From Ectocarpus siliculosus (lineage: Eukaryota; Sar; Phaeophyceae; Ectocarpales; Ectocarpaceae), in contig FN648812.1 in assembly GCA_000310025.1 (NCBI GenBank), forward strand, positions 2,103 to 38,435: a stretch of DNA of 36,333 bases, written 5' to 3'. A program made the position numbers and the translations under genes. Shown here piece after piece: positions 163 to 36,333 of this stretch. The notes beneath the pieces were generated by a model. That model was not told the DNA's origin, made no database searches, and was given only the letters and a program-made list of their open reading frames with translations. Position 1 is the first letter of the stretch, and each line of letters starts with the position of its first letter.

Positions 163-294
163 GGACTGGTCGATGACGGCGCTGTGCAGCGGGCTGAGCT
201 GCTGCTGGCTGGTGATGACCCTCTGCCGACGTTCGCGGCTGTTCGCCGGAGCTGTGTCCAACCACGAGGAGGAGAGGAGGAGGTGGCAGACTGA
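163..294 (+). CDS. Gene 1, candidate exon 9 in the phase-0 frame
   Basis: After the acceptor ending gatccag, the frame in phase with exon 8 is open for 43 codons and closes at TGA 292-294. It begins GLVDDGAVQRAELLLAGDDP and looks protein-like. It overlaps the start of the coiled-coil ORF (ATG at 173), which is in the +1 frame. Either this is the true C-terminus of the upstream protein, or the two frames are joined in a way the DNA does not show. Confidence 0.35.
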   Translation, partial: GLVDDGAVQRAELLLAGDDPLPTFAAVRRSCVQPRGGEEEVAD

Positions 295-1051
295 GGCCGA
301 TATTGCCACCGCCGCCGCCGTCGCCGCGTCCGGGGAGAAGATGGAAAAGAAGATGCAGCTGGTCTTCCAGAGCCAGCTCGAGGAGGAGAGGGCGAGGTGG
401 CAGACTGAGGCCGAGATCGCCACCGCCGCCGCCATCGCCGCGTCAGAGGAGAAGATGAAGCTCGTCTTCCACAGCCAGCTCGAAATGGGGCAAGCCAAGC
501 TGGCTGACGAGATGGCAACAGTGCAGCAGGAGATCCAGGACATCCAGGAGGGCCTCACGGGCAAGCTCAACGACCTCAAGAACAACGCGGACGCCCTCGG
601 AGCTGGCCTCTTGAATGTCCAGAGCGAGAACTTGCCTGACCGCCAGTTGACGAAAGTCCTGCACAAGATGAACGAGAGGGCGGAGGAGTCCGCCAGGGTG
701 TGGGGCAAAGAGTCCGAGCTAGGCTCACACTTCGCCCATTGGAAGGTCGGCAAGAATCTACCCAAGGCAGGCGGGGGTGGCGACGACGACGAGCGCGAGG
801 AGGAGGCGGGCGGAAAACTCTCGGGGCCGTCCCAGCAGGAGGGGGAGCAGAAGGAGGAGGCGGGCGGCCAACCCTCAGGGCCGCCGCAAGAGGGGGAGGG
901 GGGGGGGAAGGGCAGGAAGAACAGGAGGGGAAAACGCGGGGGCAAGGCAAAGAAGGAGAAGAAGCCGGTGGGAGAGGGAGAGGGAGGTGACAGCAGTGAC
1001 GGGATGTCCGGGGGAGGGGAGGGGGGACAGGGCTTCTCCGCCGGCACCTAG
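173..1051 (+). CDS. Gene 1, coiled-coil WQTEA-repeat ORF (292 aa)
   Basis: This is a 292-residue open frame. Residues 1-30 are hydrophobic and Cys-containing. Two 38-residue repeats begin WQTEA at residues 38 and 76 and are rich in Ala, Glu, Lys and Gln. A helical segment with EIQDIQEGL and KLNDLKNNADAL follows, then a conserved block around KVLHKMNERAEESARVWGKE. The last 90 residues are Gly/Glu/Lys-rich with a basic RKNRRGKRGGKAKKEKK stretch that could bind nucleic acid or act in nuclear targeting. It may be the last exon of the modular gene or a separate gene starting at this ATG. I do not recognise the family; similarity to generic coiled coils would be uninformative. It differs from the gene 2 copy at ten residues. 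Confidence 0.6.
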   Translation: MTALCSGLSCCWLVMTLCRRSRLFAGAVSNHEEERRRWQTEADIATAAAVAASGEKMEKKMQLVFQSQLEEERARWQTEAEIATAAAIAASEEKMKLVFHSQLEMGQAKLADEMATVQQEIQDIQEGLTGKLNDLKNNADALGAGLLNVQSENLPDRQLTKVLHKMNERAEESARVWGKESELGSHFAHWKVGKNLPKAGGGGDDDEREEEAGGKLSGPSQQEGEQKEEAGGQPSGPPQEGEGGGKGRKNRRGKRGGKAKKEKKPVGEGEGGDSSDGMSGGGEGGQGFSAGT

Positions 1052-8833: not shown

Positions 8834-9082
8834 ATGAGGTGGTTTCCGGCGTGGCCGATGCTGCTTCTACTGGTGGCTATCACGCTGCTGCCTTTGGCGG
8901 ACGCCTTCAAGGGCCAGGGGATGCTGCGGCGAGCCAAGACCGTAGTCAAGGGCATCCCCGCCGCGCTGCGGATCATCGTTAACGACATCGATGTCCGGGT
9001 GATCCTCGAGGAGAGCACCGCAGAGCCCGCCCCCGAGGTGTTTTGGACGGCAACCCAGCCTGAAAAAGAGCCGGTTTTGGAG
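8834..9082 (+). CDS. Gene 2, exon 1: signal peptide and basic N-terminal region
   Basis: These are 83 codons from ATG to the donor GAG/gtacta, ending in phase 0. Residues 1-24 form a signal peptide: MRWFPAWP, then a leucine-rich core, then LLPLADA. Cleavage is expected after A24, leaving phenylalanine at +1 (ADA/FKGQGMLRRAKTVVKG). In heterokont algae, F at +1 followed by a basic stretch is the hallmark of bipartite plastid targeting, so plastid import is possible; simple secretion is the alternative. The ATG was chosen because it directly precedes the hydrophobic core. An in-frame ATG at 8810 is possible, but a single-base deletion in unit B breaks the frame further upstream. The exon is identical to 33036-33284, which suggests constraint or recent homogenisation. 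Confidence 0.65.
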
Positions 9083-9482
9083 GTACTACAAATATGCACA
9101 CGCACGTCATTATCGATTGGCAAAGGGGGGGAATGGCGGGTTCGAAAATGGATACGGAGCGAGGAAACTGGTATTTCATGTGGTTGACTGCCTCTGCGTG
9201 GGGAGGGGGCGGCATGGATGACAAGTGTTTCTCATCTTTTCCCCCTGAGGTTTTTACCTGCGTTATATTTTCGGGAGAGTCTCCGGCATGCGGAAAAAAA
9301 AGGTGCGTTTTGAGTACCACCACAATACATCAACACCGCTGTGATTTCAAGCCAAAGGGCCCAACCCCATGGCCGTGCTTTGTATCAAAGCACCAGCGAT
9401 CCGTTCGACTGCCACATCCAGTCGTTCTTCTCGCGCCTATTTGTGCACACTTTTCCCGCCCCGCCGCCCCGGCTCCCGGCAG

Positions 9483-9584
9483 CGTGTCGTCCGCTCCCGA
9501 GCGGCGATGGCGGTGGAAGCGCCTCCTCAACCAATCGTGCCGGAAGCCGTGCACTGGTCTCCGGTGGTCTTCGGCGATTGGCCG
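9483..9584 (+). CDS. Gene 2, candidate exon 2 (34 codons)
   Basis: The acceptor ends in a pyrimidine-rich tract with cccggcag and the donor is CCG/gtacga; both are in phase 0. The product contains VEAPPQPIVPEAVHW and ends VVFGDWP. The sequence is unchanged in gene 4 (33685-33786), whereas the flanking intron has substitutions. No domain is recognised. The exon call rests on splice signals, phase and conservation only. Confidence 0.45.
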
Positions 9585-9895
9585 GTACGATCGACATCTT
9601 GTAATGGTGGTATTGCGCTGGCAGCGTCTTGTGTGGTTGGAGCGTTTTGCACGTTGAATTTCCTGGAATTTCCTGAGTGTAGCGCGTCCCGAGCGGGGAT
9701 CAAAAGTGTTGCTGCATTTTTTGCCGAAGTGCGGTCGCCAATGTGTAGCAGATTGATGAGGCAGAGCTGATGCGTGTGTGCATGGCCATGGTTCTCATGT
9801 TGATAGTCCCTTTTGGGCTAGAAATGGCGTACACCGTTGCTGATTTGTGGCATGCACGTTACGATCGGTTGCATATCGCACCCCTACAGTATACC

Positions 9896-10174
9896 GAACC
9901 ACACAGAAGTGGTCTCGTTTTTGCTGAACTGCTCCCCTTGTCCGCCTTACTCGAACAAGTGTCCGCAACACTTGGCCGATTTGACCGCGTGGGGTCCAGC
10001 TGTTGCAGACGACAGATATAGGTAGGTAGGTGCGTGCTCGTGGTGAGGGAGAATGAGAGGAGCAGTCATGAAAGCGGAGCACGTGGTCAAATCGGCGAAG
10101 CGTTGCGGACAGATTTTTTCGAGTAAGGCGGACGAGGGAACAGTTCAGCAACGAGAGCACTGCTGTGTGGTTTC
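9896..10174. repeat. Inverted repeat 1 in intron 2 (arms about 95 bp)
   Basis: The arm at 9896-9991 (gaaccacacag ... gaccgcgtg) is the imperfect reverse complement of 10080-10174. The two are separated by about 88 bp. The right arm and spacer, read on the minus strand, resemble the pre-exon intron sequence and acceptor at 11570-11667, including cgcacctacctac and tctgcaacag. The structure is therefore probably an inverted copy of an exon module rather than a transposon. The same structure is at 34098-34374 in unit C. Confidence 0.7.
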
Positions 10175-10583
10175 TTAAGCGACGGGTACGAGAGCTGAAA
10201 TACTTTTTCCCAAACGGAACACTGCTGCTGTTGGCAACAATTAGCATTTCACAACAACGAAAAAAAAAACACCTCTGAAGCCCGGGAACGGAGGCCAAAG
10301 GCACGATGGAAGATCGTCGCTACGTCCGTTGTGGACATCGCGGTAGCCGGCAGGGTCAGGTGGCGAGTGGTGCCGACCCTTCGAAGTTTCAAGCTCGGTA
10401 CCACACCCCACGCGACCCTGCCGGCTTCCGCGACGTCCACCACGGACGTAGCGGCATTCTTTCATCGTGCATTTGGCATCCGTTCTTGGGCTTGGCGTTT
10501 TTTTTTTAAATGTTTTTTTGCCAACGGCAGCGGTGCTCCGTTTGGAAAATATGCTCTTTTGTCTCTTGCACGTTTGCCACACA
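10175..10583. repeat. Inverted repeat 2 in intron 2 (arms about 200 bp, almost no loop)
   Basis: A long imperfect palindrome is centred near 10385 (tggtgccgaccc / aagctcggtacca). Its arms run to about 10175 and 10583. The plus-strand arm ends in gttcttgggcttggcg followed by T-rich sequence, which matches the 3' ends and donors of exon 3 (tccttgggctttccg/gt) and exon 4 (gttcttgggcgtggcg/gt). The palindrome therefore looks like two degenerate exon modules facing away from each other. It is present in unit C at about 34375-34780. Confidence 0.75.
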
Positions 10584-10620
10584 TGGTGAATCGATCCATT
10601 GTGGTGCTTTTAGAAACGAT

Positions 10621-10622
<2 letters not shown>

Positions 10623-10665
<43 letters not shown>
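10623..10665. repeat. CTG microsatellite, about 14 units, intron 2 of gene 2
   Basis: This CTG run is about 43 bases long. The matching locus in gene 4 (34821-34839) has only about 6 units. It lies about 115 bases before exon 3, and a single ctgctg(cc) at the equivalent place before exon 4 (near 11527) suggests the seed was present before the module duplicated. Confidence 0.9.
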
Positions 10666-10667
<2 letters not shown>

Positions 10668-10778
10668 CGCGTCTGATGAATCATCAGCTATGCCTGACAC
10701 GGTCAAAACAGTCTTGTCCGTCTTACACCCCCTTCGCTACCCCCCGCCCACAAACACACTTCCCGTAACGTGCTGCAG

Positions 10779-10940
10779 GTTGTGGACGAGACCGTTGTTG
10801 TGACAGACGGCACGCCCGTTTGTCAGGAGCCTGGAGCGTGCGCGGTTGCGACCTTGTCGTCTGTGGCACCGCTCGACGTGGCCGCATTCCGCGTGGATCA
10901 TGTTCTATCGTGCCCTTGGTCTCCGTCCTTGGGCTTTCCG
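10779..10940 (+). CDS. Gene 2, exon 3: EPGAC-motif exon (54 codons)
   Basis: The acceptor is gtgctgcag and the donor is CCG/gtaagcg, a strong consensus; the phase is 0 at both ends. It begins VVDETVVVTD and contains CQEPGACAVATLSSV, then APLDVAAFRVDH, and ends CPWSPSLGFP. Its first 35-40 residues align with exon 5 (EIEQTSPMPLC ... CNEPGACAVASLS), and its last part aligns with exon 4 (MAPFDDGGALCVWPPFLGVA). These exons therefore look like members of one internal family. Gene 4 carries the same exon at 34953-35114 with one leucine-to-proline change. I do not know the domain. The paired cysteines in and before EPGAC could form a disulfide or a metal site; this is inference. Confidence 0.65.
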
Positions 10941-11014
10941 GTAAGCGTGGGAAATGTTTTTTTTCTATCTTGTGAAACGCGTTTGCTCCAAATATTTTTT
11001 TCTGTTGTATATGG

Positions 11015-11092
11015 TCGCCCCGGTGGTCCGTTATTGTGGTACCCGAAAACCGTTAGTCGTAATGGTCGTGAGTTTGAATCCCCTTGGGGTGA
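11015..11092 (+). tRNA. tRNA-like sequence in intron 3 (probably non-functional)
   Basis: TCGCCCC and GGGGTGA, 78 bases apart, can pair over seven positions like an acceptor stem (one G-U pair). GTGAGTTTGAATCCC near the 3' end resembles a tRNA B box. The T arm pairs poorly and the D loop is long, so this is more likely a tRNA-derived remnant or SINE head than a working tRNA. It is also present at 35188-35265. Confidence 0.25.
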
Positions 11093-11667
11093 AAACATGT
11101 ACAACATTTGCAGGTGAAAGCGAAATACAGGTGGAAAAGCTCTCGTGAGTACCAAACTTCGACGTTAGTTAGCACCGTTGACGAGGGAAAGGGACGGCTG
11201 GACCCTTCTCGCGATAAATATATATTTCAGCCCGCACCGCAGGAGAAAGGTGGAGCACGAAAATACATGAAAAGAAGAAAAGAGCCCTTGTGTTTACCCC
11301 CTCCTGTGTGGCCCTGGATGGTTGTAGTTGTACGAAAATATGTGTAGTACGGTACACACACTGAAAAGAGTAGTACACGTCTCACCATGAAAAATGGGGG
11401 ACTGTCGCCATAATAAACGGGACGAAAACAACACACATATGTGCCAGACACCTTGATTGGTATGAATCGATTCAAATGCGGTGCGTTGCAGACATTTCCC
11501 GACGCTGCCGGTGCTCATGCAGGTGGTGCTGCTGCCAAGTGTCTCACGAATGATCGGCTAGCTATGAGTGACACCGACGAAACAGTGTTGGCTCACATAG
11601 TCTACCCCTCTCCCCCCATGACGGTGCACGCACCTACCTACTATGCTGTGTCTGTCTGCAACAGCAG

Positions 11668-11781
11668 GACCTGGAACCTGCAAGCGTCGGTACCGCTCGC
11701 CACCCGACCTCGCCGGCTACCATGGCACCCTTCGATGACGGTGGCGCCTTGTGCGTATGGCCCCCGTTCTTGGGCGTGGCG
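11668..11781 (+). CDS. Gene 2, candidate exon 4 (38 codons)
   Basis: The acceptor is ctgcaacagcag and the donor is GCG/gtgagc; both ends are phase 0. The product begins DLEPASVGTARHP and ends CVWPPFLGVA. The intron before it is a diverged copy of the intron before exon 3: tgaatcgat, then tgctgctgcc, then gctatg.. tgacac, then the acceptor. The exon lacks the EPGAC part and so resembles a shortened exon 3. Gene 4 has it at 35842-35955 with a methionine-to-valine change. It may be skipped or decayed in transcripts. Confidence 0.45.
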
Positions 11782-12053
11782 GTGAGCAAGCGCTTTTTGT
11801 ATATTGTTGTTGTTGTTGTTGTCAAATATGTGTGTACGGCCAGCAGCTCATGTGTCGCACACCTATCGATTTGATTCGCTGTGGCGTTTACTTTGCGGAA
11901 ATCTCCCGCTTACGCTATTGATGCTGCCCATGCTGCTCATGCTACTGCTGCTGCTGCTAGTGAATGGGGAGATACGGTTGACACGAGTGGCCTGTGTTTA
12001 TTGCTCTAACACCCCCATTCGCTATTTTCCCCCGATGCCATCACGTGCTACAG

Positions 12054-12287
12054 GAAATAGAGCAGACGAGTCCCATGCCCTTGTGCAACGAGCCTGGGGC
12101 GTGTGCAGTGGCGAGCTTGTCGTTGATGAAGCCTCTGGACCTCGTCCAGATGGTTCAACGAGCTCTGCTGGCGGAGACTGGCCGGGCGGCCCTCCAGCAG
12201 CTCATCAGAGTGTCGCAGACGCAACGCATGTTGCGCGACTGGGACCTCTCGATGGTCTGTTTCGCCGGTCGCAACAGCACGCAGCAC
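12054..12287 (+). CDS. Gene 2, exon 5: EPGAC-motif exon with helical tail (78 codons)
   Basis: The acceptor is acgtgctacag and the donor is CAC/gtgaga, phase 0 at both ends. It begins EIEQTSPMPLCNEPGACAVA, continues SLSLMKPLDLVQMVQRALLA, and has a long amphipathic-looking stretch with LQQLIRVSQTQRMLRDWD. A paralogous exon of 74 codons lies in gene 3 (22510-22731); the EPGAC core and the PxDLxQMVxRAxLAET segment are kept while the C-terminal third diverges, which supports real coding. Gene 4 starts the same exon at 36233, where the only change in the visible 101 bases is synonymous. Confidence 0.7.
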
Positions 12288-12615
12288 GTGAGAGTCATAA
12301 CTAGCGTCTTGTCTCCCCCCCCCTCCTCGGCGATTCCTTTCAGCGGTTCGGGAGAAGTATCGATCGGGGGCGATATCCAGTGTCTTAAACGGCTGGGGTA
12401 GGTGGGCGTGGGGGGGGGGGCCCTTGGCGACATTCCTGGAGCATGGGAAACACGGTTGACGTTGCCCATATCCGGGACTCACTGGTGTCGAACACACACT
12501 CACGCATCGTCTCGTGACAAAAACAGACGAGGACTGCACCACTCCTTTGCAGCGTTTTCGCTCAGCTGAACCTTCCCCTCCCTGCCCCTCCGACCCCACC
12601 CTTTTTTTATACCAG

Positions 12616-12701
12616 TTCGGGTTCTGGAGCCTCATGTTCTTGGTCCAGAAGGCAGGGTGGCGTTCGTGGAACTACAGCGTGCCTGCTGCCATGCCTGTCA
12701 G
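12616..12701 (+). CDS. Gene 2, candidate exon 6 (aromatic-rich, 86 nt)
   Basis: A pyrimidine-rich acceptor (tttttttataccag) opens a frame reading FGFWSLMFLVQKAGWRSWNY, then SVPAAMPV. The donor cag/gtatgc leaves two bases of a codon. The aromatic, hydrophobic composition suggests a membrane-associated or buried segment. If this donor is not used, the frame stays open to a TGA at 12952-12954, giving a different C-terminus. It is present in gene 3 at 23183-23268 with one alanine-to-valine change. Confidence 0.45.
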
Positions 12702-12783
12702 GTATGCTTCGGTCATGTGCTTTGTGCATGGCAGTGTTCTTCTTCGGAAGGTCGTTTCTTCGGACGATACGTTTCCCCGTCAG

Positions 12784-12815
12784 CTCAGAGTTCATCGCGT
12801 TTGCCCAACTGTTGG
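12784..12815 (+). CDS. Gene 2, candidate micro-exon 7 (32 nt)
   Basis: After the acceptor gtttccccgtcag, the two bases carried from exon 6 complete a serine codon and the frame reads SSEFIAFAQLLG to a weak donor g/gtggat. The fit of phases on both sides and the plausible peptide are the only support. Unit B has a leucine-to-arginine change here that is silent in another frame, so the call is weak. Confidence 0.25.
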
Positions 12816-12950
12816 GTGGATGGCGAGAGCCATGCCATTGGTGTTGACGTTACCCGCGATTTTGGAAAAATCGGTGCTCAGCCATCATTCAGGGAGAAGA
12901 TTACCTGCCATCACAGGAGTTCCGTTTCAACAGTATTTTCTGTTCTGCAG

Positions 12951-13067
12951 ATGAGCGATTGCTTGATTCATTCTCAGCGCTGCTGCCAAAAATGTCCTCA
13001 TGACCTTCTGTGGGTTGACGTGTGGCACAGCGTGTTCGTAAACTGGGTACGGACGAATGCTGTTTCG
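12951..13067 (+). CDS. Gene 2, candidate exon 8 (39 codons, Cys-rich start)
   Basis: A good acceptor (tattttctgttctgcag) and the donor TCG/gtatga frame a phase-0 exon that begins MSDCLIHSQRCCQKCPHD and continues LLWVDVWHSVFVNWVRTNAV. If micro-exon 7 is used, an acceptor 17 bases earlier (caacag, exon from 12934) keeps the reading frame. The other two frames contain stops. Gene 3 has it at 23518-23634 with two changes in the Cys-rich part. Confidence 0.45.
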
Positions 13068-13201
13068 GTATGAGTTTCGCCGTTTGTTTATGGAGCTCTC
13101 ATCGATGCGCATTTACATATTCGACCGTGACTACTGCTGTAGACTTGATACTGCTGCCACCGGTGTGCGTATTGTTTCAACATTCATGACGGCTGATCCA
13201 G

Positions 13202-13333
13202 GGACTGGTCGATGACGGCGCTGTGCAGCGGGCTGAGCTGCTGCTGGCTGGTGATGACCCTCTGCCGACGTTCGCGGCTGTTCGCCGGAGCTGTGTCCAA
13301 CCACGAGGAGGAGAGGAGGAGGTGGCAGACTGA
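13202..13333 (+). CDS. Gene 2, candidate exon 9 in the phase-0 frame
   Basis: From the acceptor gatccag, the frame in phase with exon 8 reads GLVDDGAVQRAELLLAGDDP, then LPTFAAVRRSC, and stops at TGA 13331-13333. The coiled-coil ORF runs in the +1 frame over the same bases. No intron of usable size fits between the two frames. The exon therefore either ends the upstream protein at about 414 residues (summing the candidate exons) or is joined to the coil by an unseen route. Confidence 0.35.
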   Translation, partial: GLVDDGAVQRAELLLAGDDPLPTFAAVRRSCVQPRGGEEEVAD

Positions 13334-14090
13334 GGCCGATATTGCCACCGCCGCCGCCGTCGCCGCGTCCGGGGAGAAGATGGAAAAGAAGATGCAGCTG
13401 GTCTTCCAGAGCCAGCTCGAGGAGGAGAGGGCGAGGTGGCAGACTGAGGCCGAGATCGCCACCGCCGCCGCCATCGCCGCGTCAGAGGAGAAGATGAAGC
13501 TCGTCTTCCACAGCCAGCTCGAAATGGGGCAAGCCAAGCTGGCTGACGAGATGGCAACAGTGCAGCAGGAGATCCAGGGCATCCAGGAGGGCCTCACGGG
13601 CAAGCTCAACGACCTCAAGAACAACGCGGGCGCCCTCGGAGCTGGCCTCTTGAATGTCCAGAGCAAGAACTTGCCTGACCGCCAGTTGACGAAAGTCCTG
13701 CACAAGATGAACGAGAGGGCGGAGGAGTCCGCCAGGGTGTGGGGCAAAGAGTCCGAGCTAGGCTCACACTTCGCCCATTGGAAGGCCGGCAAGAATCTAC
13801 CCAAGGCAGGCGGGGGTGGCGACGACGACGGGCGCGAGGAGGAGGCGGGCGGAAACCTCTCGGGGCCGTCCCAGCAGGAGGGGGAGCAGAAGGAGGAGGC
13901 GGGCGGCCAACCCTCAGGGCCGCCGCAAGAGGAGGAGGGGGGGGGGAAGCGCAGGAAGACCAGGAGGGGAAAACGCGGGGGCAAGGCAAAGAAGGAGAAG
14001 AAGCCGGTGGGAGAGGGAGAGGGAGATGACAGCAGTGACGGGATGTCCGGGGGAGGGGAGGGGGGACAGGGCTTCTCCGCCGGCACCTAG
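13212..14090 (+). CDS. Gene 2, coiled-coil WQTEA-repeat ORF (292 aa)
   Basis: Its architecture matches 173-1051: a hydrophobic Cys-rich start, WQTEA repeats at residues 38 and 76, a predicted coiled coil to about residue 150, the conserved block HKMNERAEESARVWGKE, and an acidic Gly-rich tail ending in a basic RKTRRGKRGGKAKKEKK segment and GQGFSAGT. The end of the repeat region (SQLEMGQ) matches a deletion of 312 bp relative to gene 3 between two cagctcga octamers. All ten differences I see from gene 1 alter the residue. It may be the final exon, or an independent gene from this ATG. Confidence 0.6.
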   Translation: MTALCSGLSCCWLVMTLCRRSRLFAGAVSNHEEERRRWQTEADIATAAAVAASGEKMEKKMQLVFQSQLEEERARWQTEAEIATAAAIAASEEKMKLVFHSQLEMGQAKLADEMATVQQEIQGIQEGLTGKLNDLKNNAGALGAGLLNVQSKNLPDRQLTKVLHKMNERAEESARVWGKESELGSHFAHWKAGKNLPKAGGGGDDDGREEEAGGNLSGPSQQEGEQKEEAGGQPSGPPQEEEGGGKRRKTRRGKRGGKAKKEKKPVGEGEGDDSSDGMSGGGEGGQGFSAGT

Positions 14091-21970: not shown

Positions 21971-22395
21971 CAGACACAGGATTTGCGCCACGGCACTCTG
22001 TGGTTTTCCCTCTAGCCAAGAGCTTCCAACAGCGGCATAGCTGCCGATTGTGGGGCAACTCCGTTGGGGACATGTGGGCAACGAAGAAATGTGCATTGGC
22101 CAGCCACTAAAGCCGCGCCTCCTACCGCTTTCATGCCCTACACAGGCGAGAGAATAATGAGGTGGTTTCCGGCGTGGCCGATGCTGCTTCTACTGGTGGC
22201 TATCACGCTGCTGCCTTTTGCGGACGCCTTCAAGGGCCACGGGATGCTGCGGCTTTAGTGGCTGGGCAATGTACATTTCTTCGTTGCCCACATGTCCCCA
22301 CCGGAGTTGCCCCACAATCGGCAGCTGTGCCGCTTGTTGGAAGCTCTTGGCTAGAGGGAAAACCACAGAGTGCCGTGGCGCAAATCCTGTGTCTG
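21971..22395. repeat. Fold-back inverted repeat around the start of gene 3 (arms about 145-148 bp)
   Basis: The arm 21971-22117 (cagacacagg ... taaagccgc) recurs as its reverse complement at 22248-22395 with only a few mismatches. The 130-bp loop between them carries the ATG and signal peptide of gene 3. The left arm is the normal upstream sequence present in every unit; the right arm is new and replaces the rest of exon 1. The junction shows a shared gcggc, consistent with microhomology-mediated template switching. Confidence 0.9.
22157..22258 (+). pseudogene. Gene 3, exon 1 truncated after the signal peptide
   Basis: The frame keeps the signal peptide with ADA/FKGHGMLR, then runs into the inverted arm and stops at TAG 22256-22258 after 33 codons. 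Leucine to phenylalanine and glutamine to histidine changes are present. The normal donor and the following 50 codons are gone. Unless an unseen splice rescues it, gene 3 makes at most a signal peptide from this start. Confidence 0.75.
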
Positions 22396-22509
22396 CCAGT
22401 TTCTCGTGGGTGATCAACGATGGTTGGCGCGGACTACCCATTGTTTTGCTCTCTTACACCGCCTTCGCCATGTTCGCCCGCTGCGTCACCTTCCCATTGC
22501 GTGCTACAG

Positions 22510-22731
22510 GCAATCGACGAGGCGAGTCCCATGCCCTTGTGCGACGAGCCTGGAGCATGCGTGGTGGCGACCTTGTCGTCCGTGACCCCCGTCGACCTCA
22601 CCCAGATGGTCGATCGCGCTTTTCTGGCCGAGACTAACATGGTCCGGCAGGTATCCCAACTGCACCGCATCGTGCGCGAGTGGGAAGCCGAGCAGGCTTC
22701 GATAGTGGACGTTGCGGACGACAAGAAGCAC
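22510..22731 (+). CDS. Gene 3, divergent exon 5: EPGAC-motif exon (74 codons)
   Basis: The acceptor gcgtgctacag and donor CAC/gtgaga match those of exon 5 in gene 2, and the phase is 0 at both ends. It begins AIDEASPMPLCDEPGACVVA, then TLSSVTPVDLTQMVDRAFLA, and ends EQASIVDVADDKKH. The C-terminal third is unlike gene 2, and the surrounding introns are also divergent, whereas sequence beyond about 23090 returns to near identity. The open frame and splice sites survive although the 5' exons are missing, so it may still be used from another promoter or may be recently orphaned. Confidence 0.55.
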
Positions 22732-23182: not shown

Positions 23183-23268
23183 TTCGGGTTCTGGAGCCTC
23201 ATGTTCTTGGTCCAGAAGGCAGGGTGGCGTTCGTGGAACTACAGCGTGCCTGTTGCCATGCCTGTCAG
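23183..23268 (+). CDS. Gene 3, candidate exon 6
   Basis: It matches 12616-12701: same acceptor and donor, reading FGFWSLMFLVQKAGWRSWNY, then SVPVAMPV. A possible micro-exon 7 follows at 23351-23382, with arginine replacing leucine. Confidence 0.4.
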
Positions 23269-23517
23269 GTATGCTTCGGTCATGTTCTTTGTGCATGGCA
23301 GTGTTCTTCTTCGGAAGGTCGTTTCTTCGGACGATACGTTTCCCCGTCAGCTCAGAGTTCATCGCGTTTGCCCAACGGTTGGGTGGATGGCGAGAGCCAT
23401 GCCATTGGTGTTGACGTTACCCGCGATTTTGGAAAAATCGGTGCTCAGCCATCATTCAGGGAGAAGATTACCTGCCATCACAGGAGTTCCGTTTCAACAG
23501 TATTTTCTGTTCTGCAG

Positions 23518-23634
23518 ATGAGCGATTGCTTGATTCATTCTCAGCGTCGCTGCCAAATATGTCCTCATGACCTTCTGTGGGTTGACGTGTGGCACAGCGT
23601 GTTCGTAAACTGGGTACGGACGAACGCTGTTTCG
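23518..23634 (+). CDS. Gene 3, candidate exon 8
   Basis: It matches 12951-13067, beginning MSDCLIHSQRRCQICPHD. One of the clustered cysteines is lost (C to R) and a lysine becomes isoleucine. The donor gtatga is intact. Confidence 0.4.
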
Positions 23635-23765
23635 GTATGAGTTTCGCCGTTTGTTTATGGAGCTCTCATCGATGCGCATTTACATATTCGACCGTGACTA
23701 CTGTAGACTTGATTCTGCTGCCACCGGTGTGCGTATTGTTTCAACATTCATGACGGCTGATCCAG

Positions 23766-23897
23766 GAACTGGTCGATGACGGCGCTGTGCAGCGGGCTGA
23801 GCTGCTGCTGGCTGGTGATGACCCTCTGCCGGCGTTCGCGGCTGTTCGCCGGAGCTGTGTCCAACCACGAGGAGGAGAGGAGGAGGTGGCAGACTGA
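23766..23897 (+). CDS. Gene 3, candidate exon 9 in the phase-0 frame
   Basis: It equals 13202-13333 with G to E at the first residue and T to A in the LPTFAAV segment. The TGA at 23895-23897 is in the same place. The overlap with the coiled-coil frame is the same. Confidence 0.3.
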   Translation, partial: ELVDDGAVQRAELLLAGDDPLPAFAAVRRSCVQPRGGEEEVAD

Positions 23898-25080
23898 GGC
23901 CGATATTGCCACCGCCGCCGCCGTCGCCGCGTCAGGGAAGAAGATGGAGGACAAGATGCAGCTGGTCTTCCAGAGCCAGCTCGAGGAGGAGATGGGGAGG
24001 TGGCAGACTGAGGCCGATATTGCCACCACCGCCGCCGCCGCCGCGTCCGGGGAGAAGATGGAAAAGAAGATGCAGCTGGTCGTCCAGAGCCAGCTCGAGG
24101 AGGAGAGGAGGAGGTGGCAGACAGAGGCCGATATTGCCACCGCCGCCGCCATCGCCGCGTCAGAGGAGAAGATGAAGCTCGTCTTCCAGAGCCAGCTCGA
24201 CGAGGAGAGGGGAAAGGCCAAGCAGTTGTTCGAGAGCGTCATCGCGGACTCCCAAAAGGAGGCGGTTCTGGCCATCGGGAAGATGGTCCAGGACAACAGG
24301 GAGGCAAAGGACGGCAAGTGAAAAAATATGCTCGACGGCGTTGAGGCCAGGCTTCTCGGTCGCGTGGAGCACGAGCTTGGTGACACGCCTTCCACCATCG
24401 CCTCCCTCCGCGCAGGCGTCCTCCAGCTGAAGAAGCAAGCTGCCGACATGCCTACTGCCATGGAGAAGGCGGTGATGGACGAGATATTCCGCCTCGGCAC
24501 CGAACAGCTCGAAATGGGGCAAGTCAAGCTGGCTGACGAGATGGCAACAGTGCAGCAGGATATCCAGGACATCCAGGAGGGTCTCACGGCCAAGCTCAAC
24601 GACCTCAAGAACAACGCGGACGCCCTCGGAGCTGGCCTCTTGAAGGTCCAGAACAAGACCTTGGCTGACCGCCAGTTGCCGAAAGTCCTGCACAAGATGA
24701 ACGAGAGGGCGGAGGAGTCCGCCAGGGTGTGGGGCAAAGAGTCCGAGCTAGGCCCACACTTCGCCCATTGGAAGGTCGGCAAGCAGCTACCCAAGGCAGG
24801 CGGGGGTGGCGACGACGACGGGCGCGAGGAGGAGGCGGGCGGAAACCTCTCGGGGCCGTCCCAGCAGGAGGGGGAGCAGAAGGAGGAGGCGGGCGGCCAA
24901 CCCTCAGGGCCGCCGCAAGAGGAGGAGGGGGGGGGGGAGCGCAGGAAGACCAGGAGGGGAAAACGCGGGGTCAAGGCAAAGAAGGAAAAGAAGCCGGTGG
25001 GAGAGGGAGAGGGAGATGACAGCAGTGACGGGATGTCCGGGGGAGGGGAGGGGGGACAGGGCTTCTCCGCGGGCACCTAG
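23776..25080 (+). pseudogene. Gene 3, long coiled-coil ORF interrupted by an in-frame TGA
   Basis: The frame is open for 181 codons, hits TGA at 24319-24321, and continues in the same frame to TAG at 25078-25080. It has three WQTEA repeats instead of two. It also has a 104-codon block absent from genes 1 and 2 that includes ERGKAKQLFESVIADS before the stop and LDGVEARLLGRVEHELGD after it. An ATG at 24328, seven bases after the stop, could start a separate 250-residue product. The C-terminal part (KVLHKMNERAEESARVWGKE and the acidic/basic tail) is as well kept as in genes 1 and 2. It is either a nonsense-mutated copy, a readthrough case, or two products. Confidence 0.65.
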
Positions 25081-33035: not shown

Positions 33036-33284
33036 ATGAGGTGGTTTCCGGCGTGGCCGATGCTGCTTCTACTGGTGGCTATCACGCTGCTGCCTTTGGC
33101 GGACGCCTTCAAGGGCCAGGGGATGCTGCGGCGAGCCAAGACCGTAGTCAAGGGCATCCCCGCCGCGCTGCGGATCATCGTTAACGACATCGATGTCCGG
33201 GTGATCCTCGAGGAGAGCACCGCAGAGCCCGCCCCCGAGGTGTTTTGGACGGCAACCCAGCCTGAAAAAGAGCCGGTTTTGGAG
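33036..33284 (+). CDS. Gene 4, exon 1: signal peptide and basic N-terminal region
   Basis: This exon has 83 codons and is identical in product to gene 2 exon 1, with ADA/FKGQGMLRRAKTVVKG after the signal peptide and the donor GAG/gtacta in phase 0. The upstream region differs from unit A at scattered sites, so the invariance of the exon itself is notable. Confidence 0.65.
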
Positions 33285-33684
33285 GTACTACAAATATGCA
33301 CACGCACGTCATTATCGATTGGCAAAGGGGGGGAATGGCGGGTTCGAAAATGGATACGGAGCGAGGAAACTGGTATTTCATGTGGTTGACTGCCTCTGCG
33401 TGGGGAGGGGGCGGCATGGATGACAAGTGTTTCTCATCTTTTCCCCCTGAGGTTTTTACCTGCGTTATATTTTCGGGAGAGTCTCCTGCATGCGGAAAAA
33501 AAAGGTGCGTTTTGAGTACCACCACAATACATCAACACCGCTGTGATTTCAAGCCAAAGGGCCCAACCCCATGGCCGTGCTTTGTATCAAAGCACCAGCG
33601 ATCCGTTCGACTGCCACATCCAGTCGTTCTTCTCGCGCCTATTTGTGCACACTTTTCCCGCCCCGCCGCCCCGGCTCCCGGCAG

Positions 33685-33786
33685 CGTGTCGTCCGCTCCC
33701 GAGCGGCGATGGCGGTGGAAGCGCCTCCTCAACCAATCGTGCCGGAAGCCGTGCACTGGTCTCCGGTGGTCTTCGGCGATTGGCCG
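33685..33786 (+). CDS. Gene 4, candidate exon 2
   Basis: It is identical in product to 9483-9584, with the same acceptor and the donor gtacga. Confidence 0.45.
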
Positions 33787-34097
33787 GTACGATCGACATC
33801 TTGTAATGGTGGTGTTGCGCTGGCAGCGTCTTGTGTGGTTGGAGCGTTTTGCACGTTGAATTTCCTGGAATTTCCTGAGTGTAGCGCGTCCCGAGCGGGG
33901 ATCAAAAGTGTTGCTGCATTTTTTGCCGAAGTGCGGTCGCCAATGTGTAGCAGATTGATGAGGCAGAGCTGATGCGTGTGTTCATGGCCATGGTTCTCAT
34001 GTTGATAGTCCCTTTTGGGCTAGAAATGGCGTACACCGTCGCTGGTTTGTGTCATGCACGTTACGATCGGTTGCATATCGCACCCCTACAGTATACC

Positions 34098-34780
34098 GAA
34101 CCGCACAGAAGTGGTCTCGTTTTGCTGAACTGCTCCCTTGTCCGCCTTACTCGAACAAGTGTCCGCAACACTTGGCCGATTTGACCGCGTGGGGTCCAGC
34201 TGTTGCAGACGACAGATATAGGTAGGTAGGTGCGTGCTCGTGGTGAGGGAGAATGAGAGGAGCAGTCATGGAAGCGGAGCACGTGGTCAAATCGGCGAAG
34301 CGTTGCGGACAGATTTTTTCGAGTAAGGCGGACGAGGGAACAGTTCAGCAACGAGAGCACTGCTGTGTGGTTTCTTAAGCGACGGGTACGAGAGCTGAAA
34401 TACTTTTTCCCAAACGGAACACTGCTGCTGTTGGCAACAATAGCATTTCACAACAACGAAAAAAAAAACACCTCTGAAGCCCGGGAACGGAGGCCAAAGG
34501 CACGATGGAAGATCGTCGCTACGTCCGTTGTGGACATCGCGGTAGCCGGCAGGGTCAGGTGGCGAGTGGTGCCGACCCTTCGAAGTTTCAAGCTCGGTAC
34601 CACACCCCACGCGACCCTTCCGGCTTCCGCGACGTCCACCTCGGACGTAGCGGCAATCTTTCATCGTGCATTTGGCATCCGTTCTTGGGCTTGGCGGGGT
34701 TTTTTTAAATGTTTTTTTACCAACGGCAGCAGTGTTCCGTTTGGAAAATATGCTCTTTTTTCTCTTGCACGTTTGCCACA
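34098..34780. repeat. Paired inverted repeats in intron 2 of gene 4
   Basis: This is the copy of the two adjacent inverted repeats at 9896-10583 (arms 34098-34191 / 34280-34374, then about 34375-34583 / 34587-34780). Small changes are present, but the arms still pair extensively. Confidence 0.7.
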
Positions 34781-34820
34781 CATGATGAATCGATCCATTG
34801 TGGTGCTTTACAAACGATTT

Positions 34821-34839
34821 CTGCTGCTGCTGCTGCTGC
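34821..34839. repeat. CTG microsatellite, about 6 units, intron 2 of gene 4
   Basis: This is the short allele of the tract at 10623-10665. Confidence 0.85.
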
Positions 34840-34952
34840 CACGCGTCTGATGAATCATCAGCTATGCCTGACACGGTCAAAACAGTCTTGTCCGTCTTAC
34901 ACCCCCTTCGCTACCCCCCGCCCACGAACACACTTCCCGTGACGTGCTACAG

Positions 34953-35114
34953 GTTGTGGACGAGACCGTTGTTGTGACAGACGGCACGCCCGTTTGTCAG
35001 GAGCCTGGAGCGTGCGCGGTTGCGACCTTGTCGTCTGTGGCACCGCTCGACGTGGCCGCATTCCGCGTGGATCATGTTCCATCGTGCCCTTGGTCTCCGT
35101 CCTTGGGCTTTCCG
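34953..35114 (+). CDS. Gene 4, exon 3: EPGAC-motif exon
   Basis: The acceptor is gtgctacag and the donor CCG/gtaagc, phase 0 at both ends, 54 codons with CQEPGACAVATLSSV. There is one L to P change from gene 2 near the end. Confidence 0.65.
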
Positions 35115-35187
35115 GTAAGCGTGGGAAATGTTTTTTTCTATCTTGTGAAACGTGTTTGCTCCAAATGTTTTTTTCTGTTGTATATGG

Positions 35188-35265
35188 TCGCCCCGGTGGT
35201 CCGTTATTGTGGTACCCGAAAACCGTTAGTCGTAATGGTCGTGAGTTTGAATCCCCTTGGGGTGA
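35188..35265 (+). tRNA. tRNA-like sequence in intron 3 of gene 4 (probably non-functional)
   Basis: It is the copy of 11015-11092 with the same acceptor-like pairing and B-box-like segment. The poor T arm is also the same. Confidence 0.25.
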
Positions 35266-35841
35266 AAACATGTACAACATTTGCAGGTGAAAGCGAAATA
35301 CAGGTGGAAAAGCTCTCGTGAGTACCAAACTTCGACGTTAGTTAGCACCGTTGACGAGGGAAAGGGACGGCTGGACCCTTCTCGCGATAAATATATATTT
35401 CAGCCCGCACCGCAGGAGAAAGGTGGAGCACGAAAATACATGAAAAGAAGAAAAGAGCCCTTGTGTTTACCCCCTCCTGTGTGGCCCTGGATGGTTGTAG
35501 TTGTACGAACAATATGTGTAGTACGGTGCACACACTGAAAAGAGTAGTACACGCCTCACCATGAAAAATGGGGGACTGTCGCCATAATAAACGGGACGAA
35601 AACAACGCACATATGTGCCAGACACCTTGATTGGTATGAATCGATTCAAATGCGGTGCGTTGCAGACATTTCCCGACGCCGCTGGTGCTCATGCAGGTGG
35701 TGCTGCTGCCAAGTGTCTCACGAATGATCGGCTAGCTATGAGTGACACCGACGAAACAGTGTTGGCTCGCATAGTCTACCCCTCTCCCCCCATGACGGTG
35801 CACGCACCTACCTACTATGCTATGTCTGTCTGCAACAGCAG

Positions 35842-35955
35842 GACCTGGAACCTGCAAGCGTCGGTACCGCTCGCCACCCGACCTCGCCGGCTACCGTGGC
35901 ACCCTTCGATGACGGTGGCGCCTTGTGCGTATGGCCCCCGTTCTTGGGCGTGGCG
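35842..35955 (+). CDS. Gene 4, candidate exon 4
   Basis: It equals 11668-11781 with M to V in the TMAPFDD segment. The acceptor aacagcag and donor gtgagc are intact. Confidence 0.45.
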
Positions 35956-36232
35956 GTGAGCAAGCGCTTTTGTATATTGTTGTTGTTGTTGTTGTTTTTG
36001 TCAAATATGTGTGTACTGCCAGCAGCTCATGTGTCGCACACCTATCGATTCGATTCGCTGTGGCGTTTACTTTGCGGAAATCTCCCGCTTACGCTATTGA
36101 TGCTGCCCATGCTGCTCATGCTACTGCTGCTGCTGCTAGTGAATGGGGAGATACGGTTGACACGAGTGGCGTGTGTTTATTGCTCTAACACCCCCATTCG
36201 CTATGTTCCCCCGATGCCATCACGTCCTACAG

Positions 36233-36333
36233 GAAATAGAGCAGACGAGTCCCATGCCCTTGTGCAACGAGCCTGGGGCGTGTGCAGTGGCGAGCTTGTC
36301 GTTGATGAAGCCCCTGGACCTCGTCCAGATGGT
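36233..36333 (+). CDS. Gene 4, exon 5 (partial, cut by window end)
   Basis: These are the first 101 bases of the EPGAC exon, reading EIEQTSPMPLCNEPGACAVA and onward to PLDLVQM. The only difference from gene 2 is a silent change in a proline codon. Confidence 0.65.

What the first reader, a model, noticed from the sequence alone, without database searches (positions are those of the whole stretch)
8834..12287. Gene grown from symmetric phase-0 exons sharing a C-x-EPGAC motif
Exons 1-5 all begin and end in phase 0, so any one can be lost, gained or duplicated without breaking the frame. Exons 3 and 5 share C-x-EPGAC-x-VA-[TS]-LS followed by P-[LV]-D-[LV], and exon 4 resembles the tail of exon 3. 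Exon shuffling in phase-0 repeat exons has been described for candidate immune receptor families in brown algae (LRR-ROCO and NB-ARC-TPR); this could be another family using the same logic, but no LRR or nucleotide-binding domain is present.
Basis: partly seen in the sequence, partly recalled or inferred. Interest (0 to 1): 0.75.

Follow-up and report, generated by a model that had tools for sequence, protein, structure and literature searches.

The report
Membrane gene built from tripled exons
A brown-alga-like genome carries a small tandem family of unnamed genes, probably for membrane-anchored surface proteins, whose cysteine-bearing outer part seems to have grown when a pair of exons was copied three times and two of the copies were fused into one exon.

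Summary
The exons are real and the five introns from e1 to e6 are phase 0, but the region given is only part of a longer gene (8834-14090, seven exons) encoding a signal peptide, short modules with C-x-E-P-G-A-C, a probable transmembrane segment, a long helix and a basic tail. The window is a tandem array; the genome holds at least 7 copies with two EPGAC exons, 4 with one, and two divergent relatives elsewhere. Among type-A copies e1-e5 carry no indels while introns carry many, and dN/dS between subfamilies is 0.17-0.52, so the exons are coding. Exon 3 is a chimera at DNA level: its head and upstream intron match exon e5, its tail and downstream intron match exon e4. The gene looks like three trimmed tandem copies of one e4+e5 block, not independently shuffled exons. 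The immune-receptor analogy is weak: no LRR, NB-ARC or ROC domain, and published LRR-ROCO exons are phase 2. Function is inferred from architecture only. Extra: intron 2 holds a long hairpin of dead e4 copies, partly complementary to the gene's own exons. An orphan family with an unusually legible growth history.

The parts
8834..9082 (+). exon 1: signal peptide and start of the mature protein; ends phase 0
   Evidence: ORF, GT donor; no indels in 7 type-A copies; hydropathy peak 2.05 at residues 4-22
9483..9584 (+). exon 2, 34 aa, phase 0-0
   Evidence: AG/GT bounds, no indels in 7 copies; no DNA match in the type-B gene
9897..10172 (+). intron-2 hairpin 1; both arms match one intron segment of the type-B gene
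   Evidence: -166 kcal/mol, z -16.4; 4 variable of 276 columns in 7 copies; B match
10206..10549 (+). intron-2 hairpin 2; arms are inverted copies of a dead exon-4 relative (e4', about 10383-10497)
   Evidence: -234 kcal/mol, z -19.7; in the genome DNA search found in the 7 type-A genes only; alignments
10779..10940 (+). exon 3, phase 0-0: e5-type EPGAC head fused to e4-type tail
   Evidence: 10615-10877 matches B e5 head plus intron, E 2.8e-30; 10908-10990 matches B e4 tail plus intron, E 6.3e-8
11668..11781 (+). exon 4, tail-type module, phase 0-0
12054..12287 (+). exon 5: EPGAC module plus long helix, phase 0-0
   Evidence: AlphaFold helix 27-76, mean pLDDT 71.5
12616..12701 (+). exon 6, phase 0 to 2
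   Evidence: the next exon of the C484 relative also ends in phase 2 (read)
13202..14090 (+). terminal exon: probable transmembrane segment, long helix, basic tail, stop
   Evidence: phase 2 start, open to stop; hydropathy 1.57; helix 3-156
163..1051 (+). terminal exon of the upstream copy (rest of that gene not readable)
22157..22253 (+). copy 3 (type B): exon-1 start, broken by a stop after 33 codons and followed by rearranged DNA
22510..22731 (+). copy 3: type-B EPGAC exon, phase 0-0
23183..25080 (+). copy 3: exon 6 (23183-23268) and terminal exon (23768-25080), the latter with extra repeat
33036..36333 (+). copy 4 (type A): exons 1-5, cut by the contig end

Best explanation
An orphan, tandemly repeated brown-algal gene for a secreted-then-anchored single-pass membrane protein. 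Outside the cell it would show a chain of short cysteine modules, one per phase-0 exon; inside, a long helix with a basic tail that probably oligomerises or binds partners. The outer chain grew when an ancestral two-exon block (e4+e5 with introns) was copied in tandem to three and trimmed by deletions: one deletion fused the head of one e5 to the tail of the next e4 in frame, making exon 3; another removed a whole e5; one e4 copy died and became a hairpin in intron 2. Shown: exons, phases, coding constraint, chimeric exon 3, copy-number differences. Inferred: order of events (two-module ancestor), membrane topology, surface display. Most likely role, unproven: a lineage-specific surface recognition, adhesion or wall-sensing protein.
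For: Gene model and splice sites; 0 gap events in e1-e5 (861 bp) against 55 in introns 1-4 (2593 bp) over six comparisons with the window copy, not independent; dN/dS A-B 0.40 (e5) and 0.52 (e1), B-C484 0.17, C484-C27 0.30; C484 and C27 keep the 0-0 borders of the EPGAC exon, and in C484 the next exon ends and the terminal exon opens in phase 2 (read); exon-3 chimera with intron flanks; repeated pre-e5 intron segments (10587-10716 and 11463-11590, 70%, E 9e-14, triplet runs included) and three e4-type stretches each matching B's e4 (E 1.7e-4, 6.3e-8, 8.9e-6); the protein searches found one EPGAC exon each in type B, C484 and C27; signal-peptide and transmembrane hydropathy peaks, the latter also in C484; helices.
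Against: No RNA data; exon 2 and the splice joins rest on consensus sites. Among near-identical A copies pN/pS is 0.77 for e1-e4 (13 nonsynonymous, 6 synonymous; exon 1 alone 7 and 1), 0.60 for e5 (2 and 1) and 0.41 for the first 195 codons of the terminal exon (15 and 10), so recent constraint on the outer part is not shown. Of five A copies readable to the end, only two (W2, L001) keep one frame to the stop: L009 has a frameshift in e6, L002 and L006 in the tail. The head of e3 is nearer B's e5 (dS 0.49, 22 codons) than A's own e5 (dS 1.23, 26 codons), which leaves open that B lost modules. Forced alignments of the repeat segments give 59-69% for five of six pairs (48% for the sixth) and 54-60% for the six e4 pairs, the low end close to what unrelated DNA might give (no control run). 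The window protein's transmembrane score is borderline (1.57). Heptad scoring: 7 of 200 shuffles reach A's score, 65 of 200 that of C484.
Confidence: 0.58

Rival explanations
1. A brown-algal candidate immune receptor that diversifies by shuffling symmetric exons.
For: Tandem array, module-number differences and cysteine modules behind a signal peptide; exon 1 has 7 nonsynonymous to 1 synonymous change among copies.
Against: No LRR, NB-ARC, TPR or ROC domain; LRR-ROCO exons are phase 2; the 7 A copies share one layout of e1-e5, with no shuffled variants (W4 cut in e5); the exon-1 numbers are too small to show positive selection.
Confidence: 0.15
2. A decaying array of pseudogenes or a repeat with chance open frames.
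For: Broken type-B copies, frameshifts in 3 of 5 A copies readable to the end, pN/pS near 0.8 in e1-e4.
Against: No indels in e1-e5 of 7 copies; dN/dS 0.17-0.52 between subfamilies and conserved exon borders at 38-45% protein identity to C484.
Confidence: 0.1
3. Type B is derived: the ancestor already had three units and B lost two.
For: e3 head is closer to B's e5 than to A's e5 at synonymous sites; C484 and C27 give no e4 match to root the count.
Against: One EPGAC exon each in C484 and C27; DNA with introns gives A e5-B 0.69, A e3-B 0.66, A e3-A e5 0.62, a small difference.
Confidence: 0.25
4. A structural membrane or cell-wall anchor, not a recognition protein.
For: No catalytic domain; long helix and basic tail; at two loci on C23 only the membrane-helix-tail exon was found, no outer exon upstream matching better than E 0.1.
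Against: Nothing decisive.
Confidence: 0.3

Closest known systems
Brown-algal LRR-ROCO genes (PMC11378527: abstract, section 11 and passages read)
   Same: Repeat modules coded by single exons of uniform phase; duplication within genes; brown algae
   Different: LRR exons are 72 bp and phase 2; ROC-COR GTPases (cytosolic: recalled); mostly dispersed in one species discussed there. Here phase 0, no LRR or ROC, signal peptide and probable transmembrane segment, fused exon, tandem array
Brown-algal NB-ARC-TPR genes (Teng 2023, seen only as cited in PMC11378527)
   Same: Tandem expansion and shuffled repeat exons, as stated there
   Different: No NB-ARC or TPR match here; exon phase not checked
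EsV-1-7 cysteine-motif proteins (PF19114)
   Same: Short cysteine motif in repeats; abundant in this genome
   Different: No PF19114 match in this protein; different motif
miRNA genes born by inverted duplication of target sequence (Allen 2004, recalled; seen as a reference in PMC4513859)
   Same: Hairpin 2 arms are inverted copies of the gene's own exon, in an intron, sense strand
   Different: No small-RNA data; the 2015 survey found no Ectocarpus miRNA precursor derived from protein-coding genes (PMC4513859 section 21 read)

Membership tests
LRR-ROCO exon-shuffled genes | LRR consensus and ROC-COR domain | tested here: not met
   Pfam scan of the 611-aa model at E up to 1: only DUF4156 at E 0.21, below cut-off
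LRR-ROCO exon-shuffled genes | 72-bp phase-2 repeat exons | tested here: not met
   Exons of 102, 162, 114 and 234 bp, phase 0-0
NB-ARC-TPR genes | NB-ARC and TPR domains | tested here: not met
NB-ARC-TPR genes | Exon phase of TPR repeats | not tested
   DOI tried for Zambounis 2012 not held; Teng 2023 seen only as a reference, not looked up
EsV-1-7 family | PF19114 motif | tested here: not met
   No match; the motif exists elsewhere in the genome
Single-pass membrane surface protein | N-terminal signal peptide | tested here: met
   Hydropathy only: 2.05 at residues 4-22; type B start is similar by eye; no dedicated predictor
Single-pass membrane surface protein | One transmembrane segment after the outer part | tested here: inconclusive
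   1.57 in the window protein, 2.15 in C484; no dedicated predictor
miRNA precursor (hairpin 2) | Pairing kept by selection (G-U over A-C mismatches) | tested here: not met
   8 G-U to 6 A-C, P 0.79
miRNA precursor (hairpin 2) | Precise small RNA with star strand | not testable with these tools
   No small-RNA reads
Immune receptor | Role in defence | not testable with these tools
   No expression or phenotype data

The most novel reading that the evidence does not exclude
Intron 2 is a young regulator: dead copies of exon 4 joined in opposite directions form a 344-nt sense-strand hairpin whose small RNAs would silence the gene and its relatives. It would be a self-targeting small-RNA locus born inside a tandem family by inverted duplication of its own exon, a route for which the 2015 survey of Ectocarpus miRNAs found no case (PMC4513859 section 21).
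Probability: 0.1. Interest if true: 0.7.

Novelty: new variant of a known kind. Interest (0 to 1): 0.4.

Why it matters
The copies and relatives preserve intermediates of how a lineage-specific protein grows: a phase-0 block copied with its introns, an in-frame fusion inside an exon, in-exon duplication in a relative, and exon death into a hairpin. It makes a testable case that uniform intron phase arises because one block was copied, rather than because single exons were shuffled. No function is known for the family.

Tried and rejected
Transposon origin of e4 and the hairpins: not supported. In the genome DNA searches hairpin 2 was found only in the 7 type-A genes and hairpin 1 in the same 7 plus a 57-bp match in the type-B gene L003; such searches can miss diverged copies.

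Selection on hairpin pairing: G-U against A-C counts are 8 to 6 and 3 to 2, no bias. Hairpin 1 is less variable than the other introns (4 of 276 against 93 of 1940 columns, P 0.007), hairpin 2 slightly more (25 of 326, P 0.04). These comparisons are post hoc, and gene conversion could explain them.

Other members by motif: 5 of 23 pattern hits lie outside the family, one with an in-frame stop, near the reversed-pattern level of 2; I did not fetch them.

Relatives elsewhere: pattern stretches matched (25, 88 and 190) but none was confirmed in viral contigs or prokaryote genomes; no phage DNA match to 10700-12300; best solved-structure match E 0.49; no Rfam family in the window. The word EPGAC is in 0 library papers. 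No eukaryote genome other than G000 was searched.

Candidate exon 12954-13056 was left out: its inclusion would give an immediate stop after e6 (read).

Spacer ORFs 14.1-22 kb: nine of the 28 listed were scanned (with the terminal exon as tenth protein); one weak hit below cut-off (PF23134, E 0.058).

Upstream of the two extra terminal-exon relatives on C23 no outer exon matched better than E 0.1.
Full report
Where it lies. The window is C264:2103-38435 of a 189-Mb genome. The 150 EsV-1-7 candidates that were scored (of 880) all passed the family's cut-off, and none of 14 control genomes had any; the link of that motif to brown algae is recalled, so the organism is brown-alga-like, species not established. 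The window is a tandem array: units of about 11-13 kb, long matches 94-98% identical.

The gene. The gene does not end at 12287. Exon 6 (12616-12701) ends in phase 2, and the terminal exon 13202-14090 opens in phase 2 and runs to a stop. The 611-residue product has a signal-peptide-like start (hydropathy 2.05) and a probable membrane segment (1.57; 2.15 in the C484 relative). A low-depth AlphaFold model gives a long helix, residues 3-156 of the terminal exon, and a disordered basic tail (mean pLDDT 65.7); exon 5 is predicted as a short helix plus a 50-residue helix (71.5). Pfam finds nothing above cut-off.

It is coding. Seven type-A copies were found (4 on C23, 2 on C264, 1 on C302). Against the window copy, e1-e5 show 0 gap events in 861 bp and introns 1-4 show 55 in 2593 bp, summed over six comparisons (not independent; W4's cut e5 left out). 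Substitutions per site are 0.8% in exons and 1.6% in introns. Between subfamilies dN/dS is 0.40 and 0.52 (A-B e5 and e1), 0.17 (B-C484 e5) and 0.30 (C484-C27); for A-C484 synonymous sites are saturated. Against this, recent changes among A copies are 13 nonsynonymous and 6 synonymous in e1-e4 (pN/pS 0.77; exon 1 alone 7 and 1), and 3 of 5 A copies readable to the end carry a frameshift in e6 or in the tail.

The family. Type B (4 copies) has one EPGAC exon. One copy (L003) has intact exons 1, e4-like, e5 and e6; its terminal exon is one base longer than the window's, which shifts the frame. Two (window copy 3 and L005) have exon 1 cut by a stop after 33 codons and a rearrangement; one (L007) cannot be read in full. 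C484 and C27 hold one divergent locus each, with the motif as C-x-E-A-G-A-C; in C27 it occurs twice inside one exon, the second time without the last cysteine. Both keep the phase-0 borders of the EPGAC exon; for C484 the following exon again ends in phase 2 and the terminal exon opens in phase 2 (read from the sequence). No search matched e4 there. Two further loci on C23 share only the terminal-exon type. All counts are lower bounds, since the genome search says so and several loci hold runs of N.

How it grew. Type-A DNA was compared with the type-B gene of L003. The 3' part of intron 2 plus the head of e3 (10615-10877) matches B's e5 head with its upstream intron (68.8%, E 2.8e-30). The tail of e3 plus the start of intron 3 (10908-10990) matches B's e4 tail with its downstream intron (70.9%, E 6.3e-8). 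Swapped comparisons score far lower: e3 head against B's e4 region 18 instead of 90, e3 tail against A's e5 tail 13 instead of 34. Exon 3 is thus an e5 head fused to an e4 tail, with the join inside the exon. Type A also has three stretches that match B's e4, one of them a dead copy inside intron 2, and repeated pre-e5 intron segments; some of the latter matches include triplet runs, and the pair of middle and last segment is only 48% alike. The simplest history is three tandem copies of one e4+e5 block, then deletions. Since e4 and e5 are both phase 0-0, copies stay in frame and the later introns inherit phase 0. That the two-module state is older is inferred from the single EPGAC exons of B, C484 and C27; synonymous distances of short stretches do not settle it.

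The hairpins. Intron 2 holds two inverted repeats. Hairpin 2 (10206-10549) folds at -234 kcal/mol (z -19.7) and its arms are e4 relatives. Windows of 21 nt on its 5' arm pair with e3 of the type-A mRNA at penalty 2.0 and with the e4-like exon of the type-B mRNA at 2.5; of five shuffles one reached 4.0 and four nothing up to 4; hairpin 1 gave no such pairing. This follows from homology and is not evidence of function. G-U to A-C mismatches show no bias. In Ectocarpus 75% of the miRNA loci of the 2015 survey lie within protein-coding genes, chiefly in introns, and none was found to derive from protein-coding sequence (PMC4513859, section 21 read), so a real small RNA here would be of an origin not reported there.

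Compared with the known. The LRR-ROCO parallel fails on domain and phase. What remains alike is a general logic: one module per exon, uniform phase, copying within the gene. Function is unproven; the architecture points to a surface protein with an inner helical tail.

Noticed in passing
window 10206-10549 and 9897-10172: Two long intronic inverted repeats; the second is built of dead exon-4 copies and is partly complementary to the gene's own exons. Hairpin 1 is unusually invariant among 7 copies (4 of 276 columns).
   Followed up: partly
window 22157-22510: Type-B copy 3 has a type-A upstream region and exon-1 start joined to an inverted piece of that upstream region, ending the frame after 33 codons; L005 has the same arrangement.
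   Followed up: partly
window 23768-25080: Terminal exon of copy 3 carries an extra repeat of the helical segment (open frame of 439 aa).
   Followed up: no
window 12954-13056: Splice-bounded candidate exon whose inclusion would stop the protein just before the membrane segment: a possible secreted form.
   Followed up: no
C23:1126848-1128197 and C23:2803520-2804815 (L014, L015, L017, L018): Two loci share only the membrane-helix-tail exon, ending in a similar C-terminus; their upstream exons were not identified.
   Followed up: partly
L016 (C23:2065562-2065636): Isolated stretch resembling an e4-type tail (SCLWPPFFGLP) without a donor site.
   Followed up: partly
window 10620-10665, 11917-11960: CTG-type triplet runs sit in the intron before the EPGAC exons, also in type B.
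   Followed up: no
several fetched loci: Runs of N lie in or beside some copies; gene counts are lower bounds and some frameshifts may be assembly errors.
   Followed up: no
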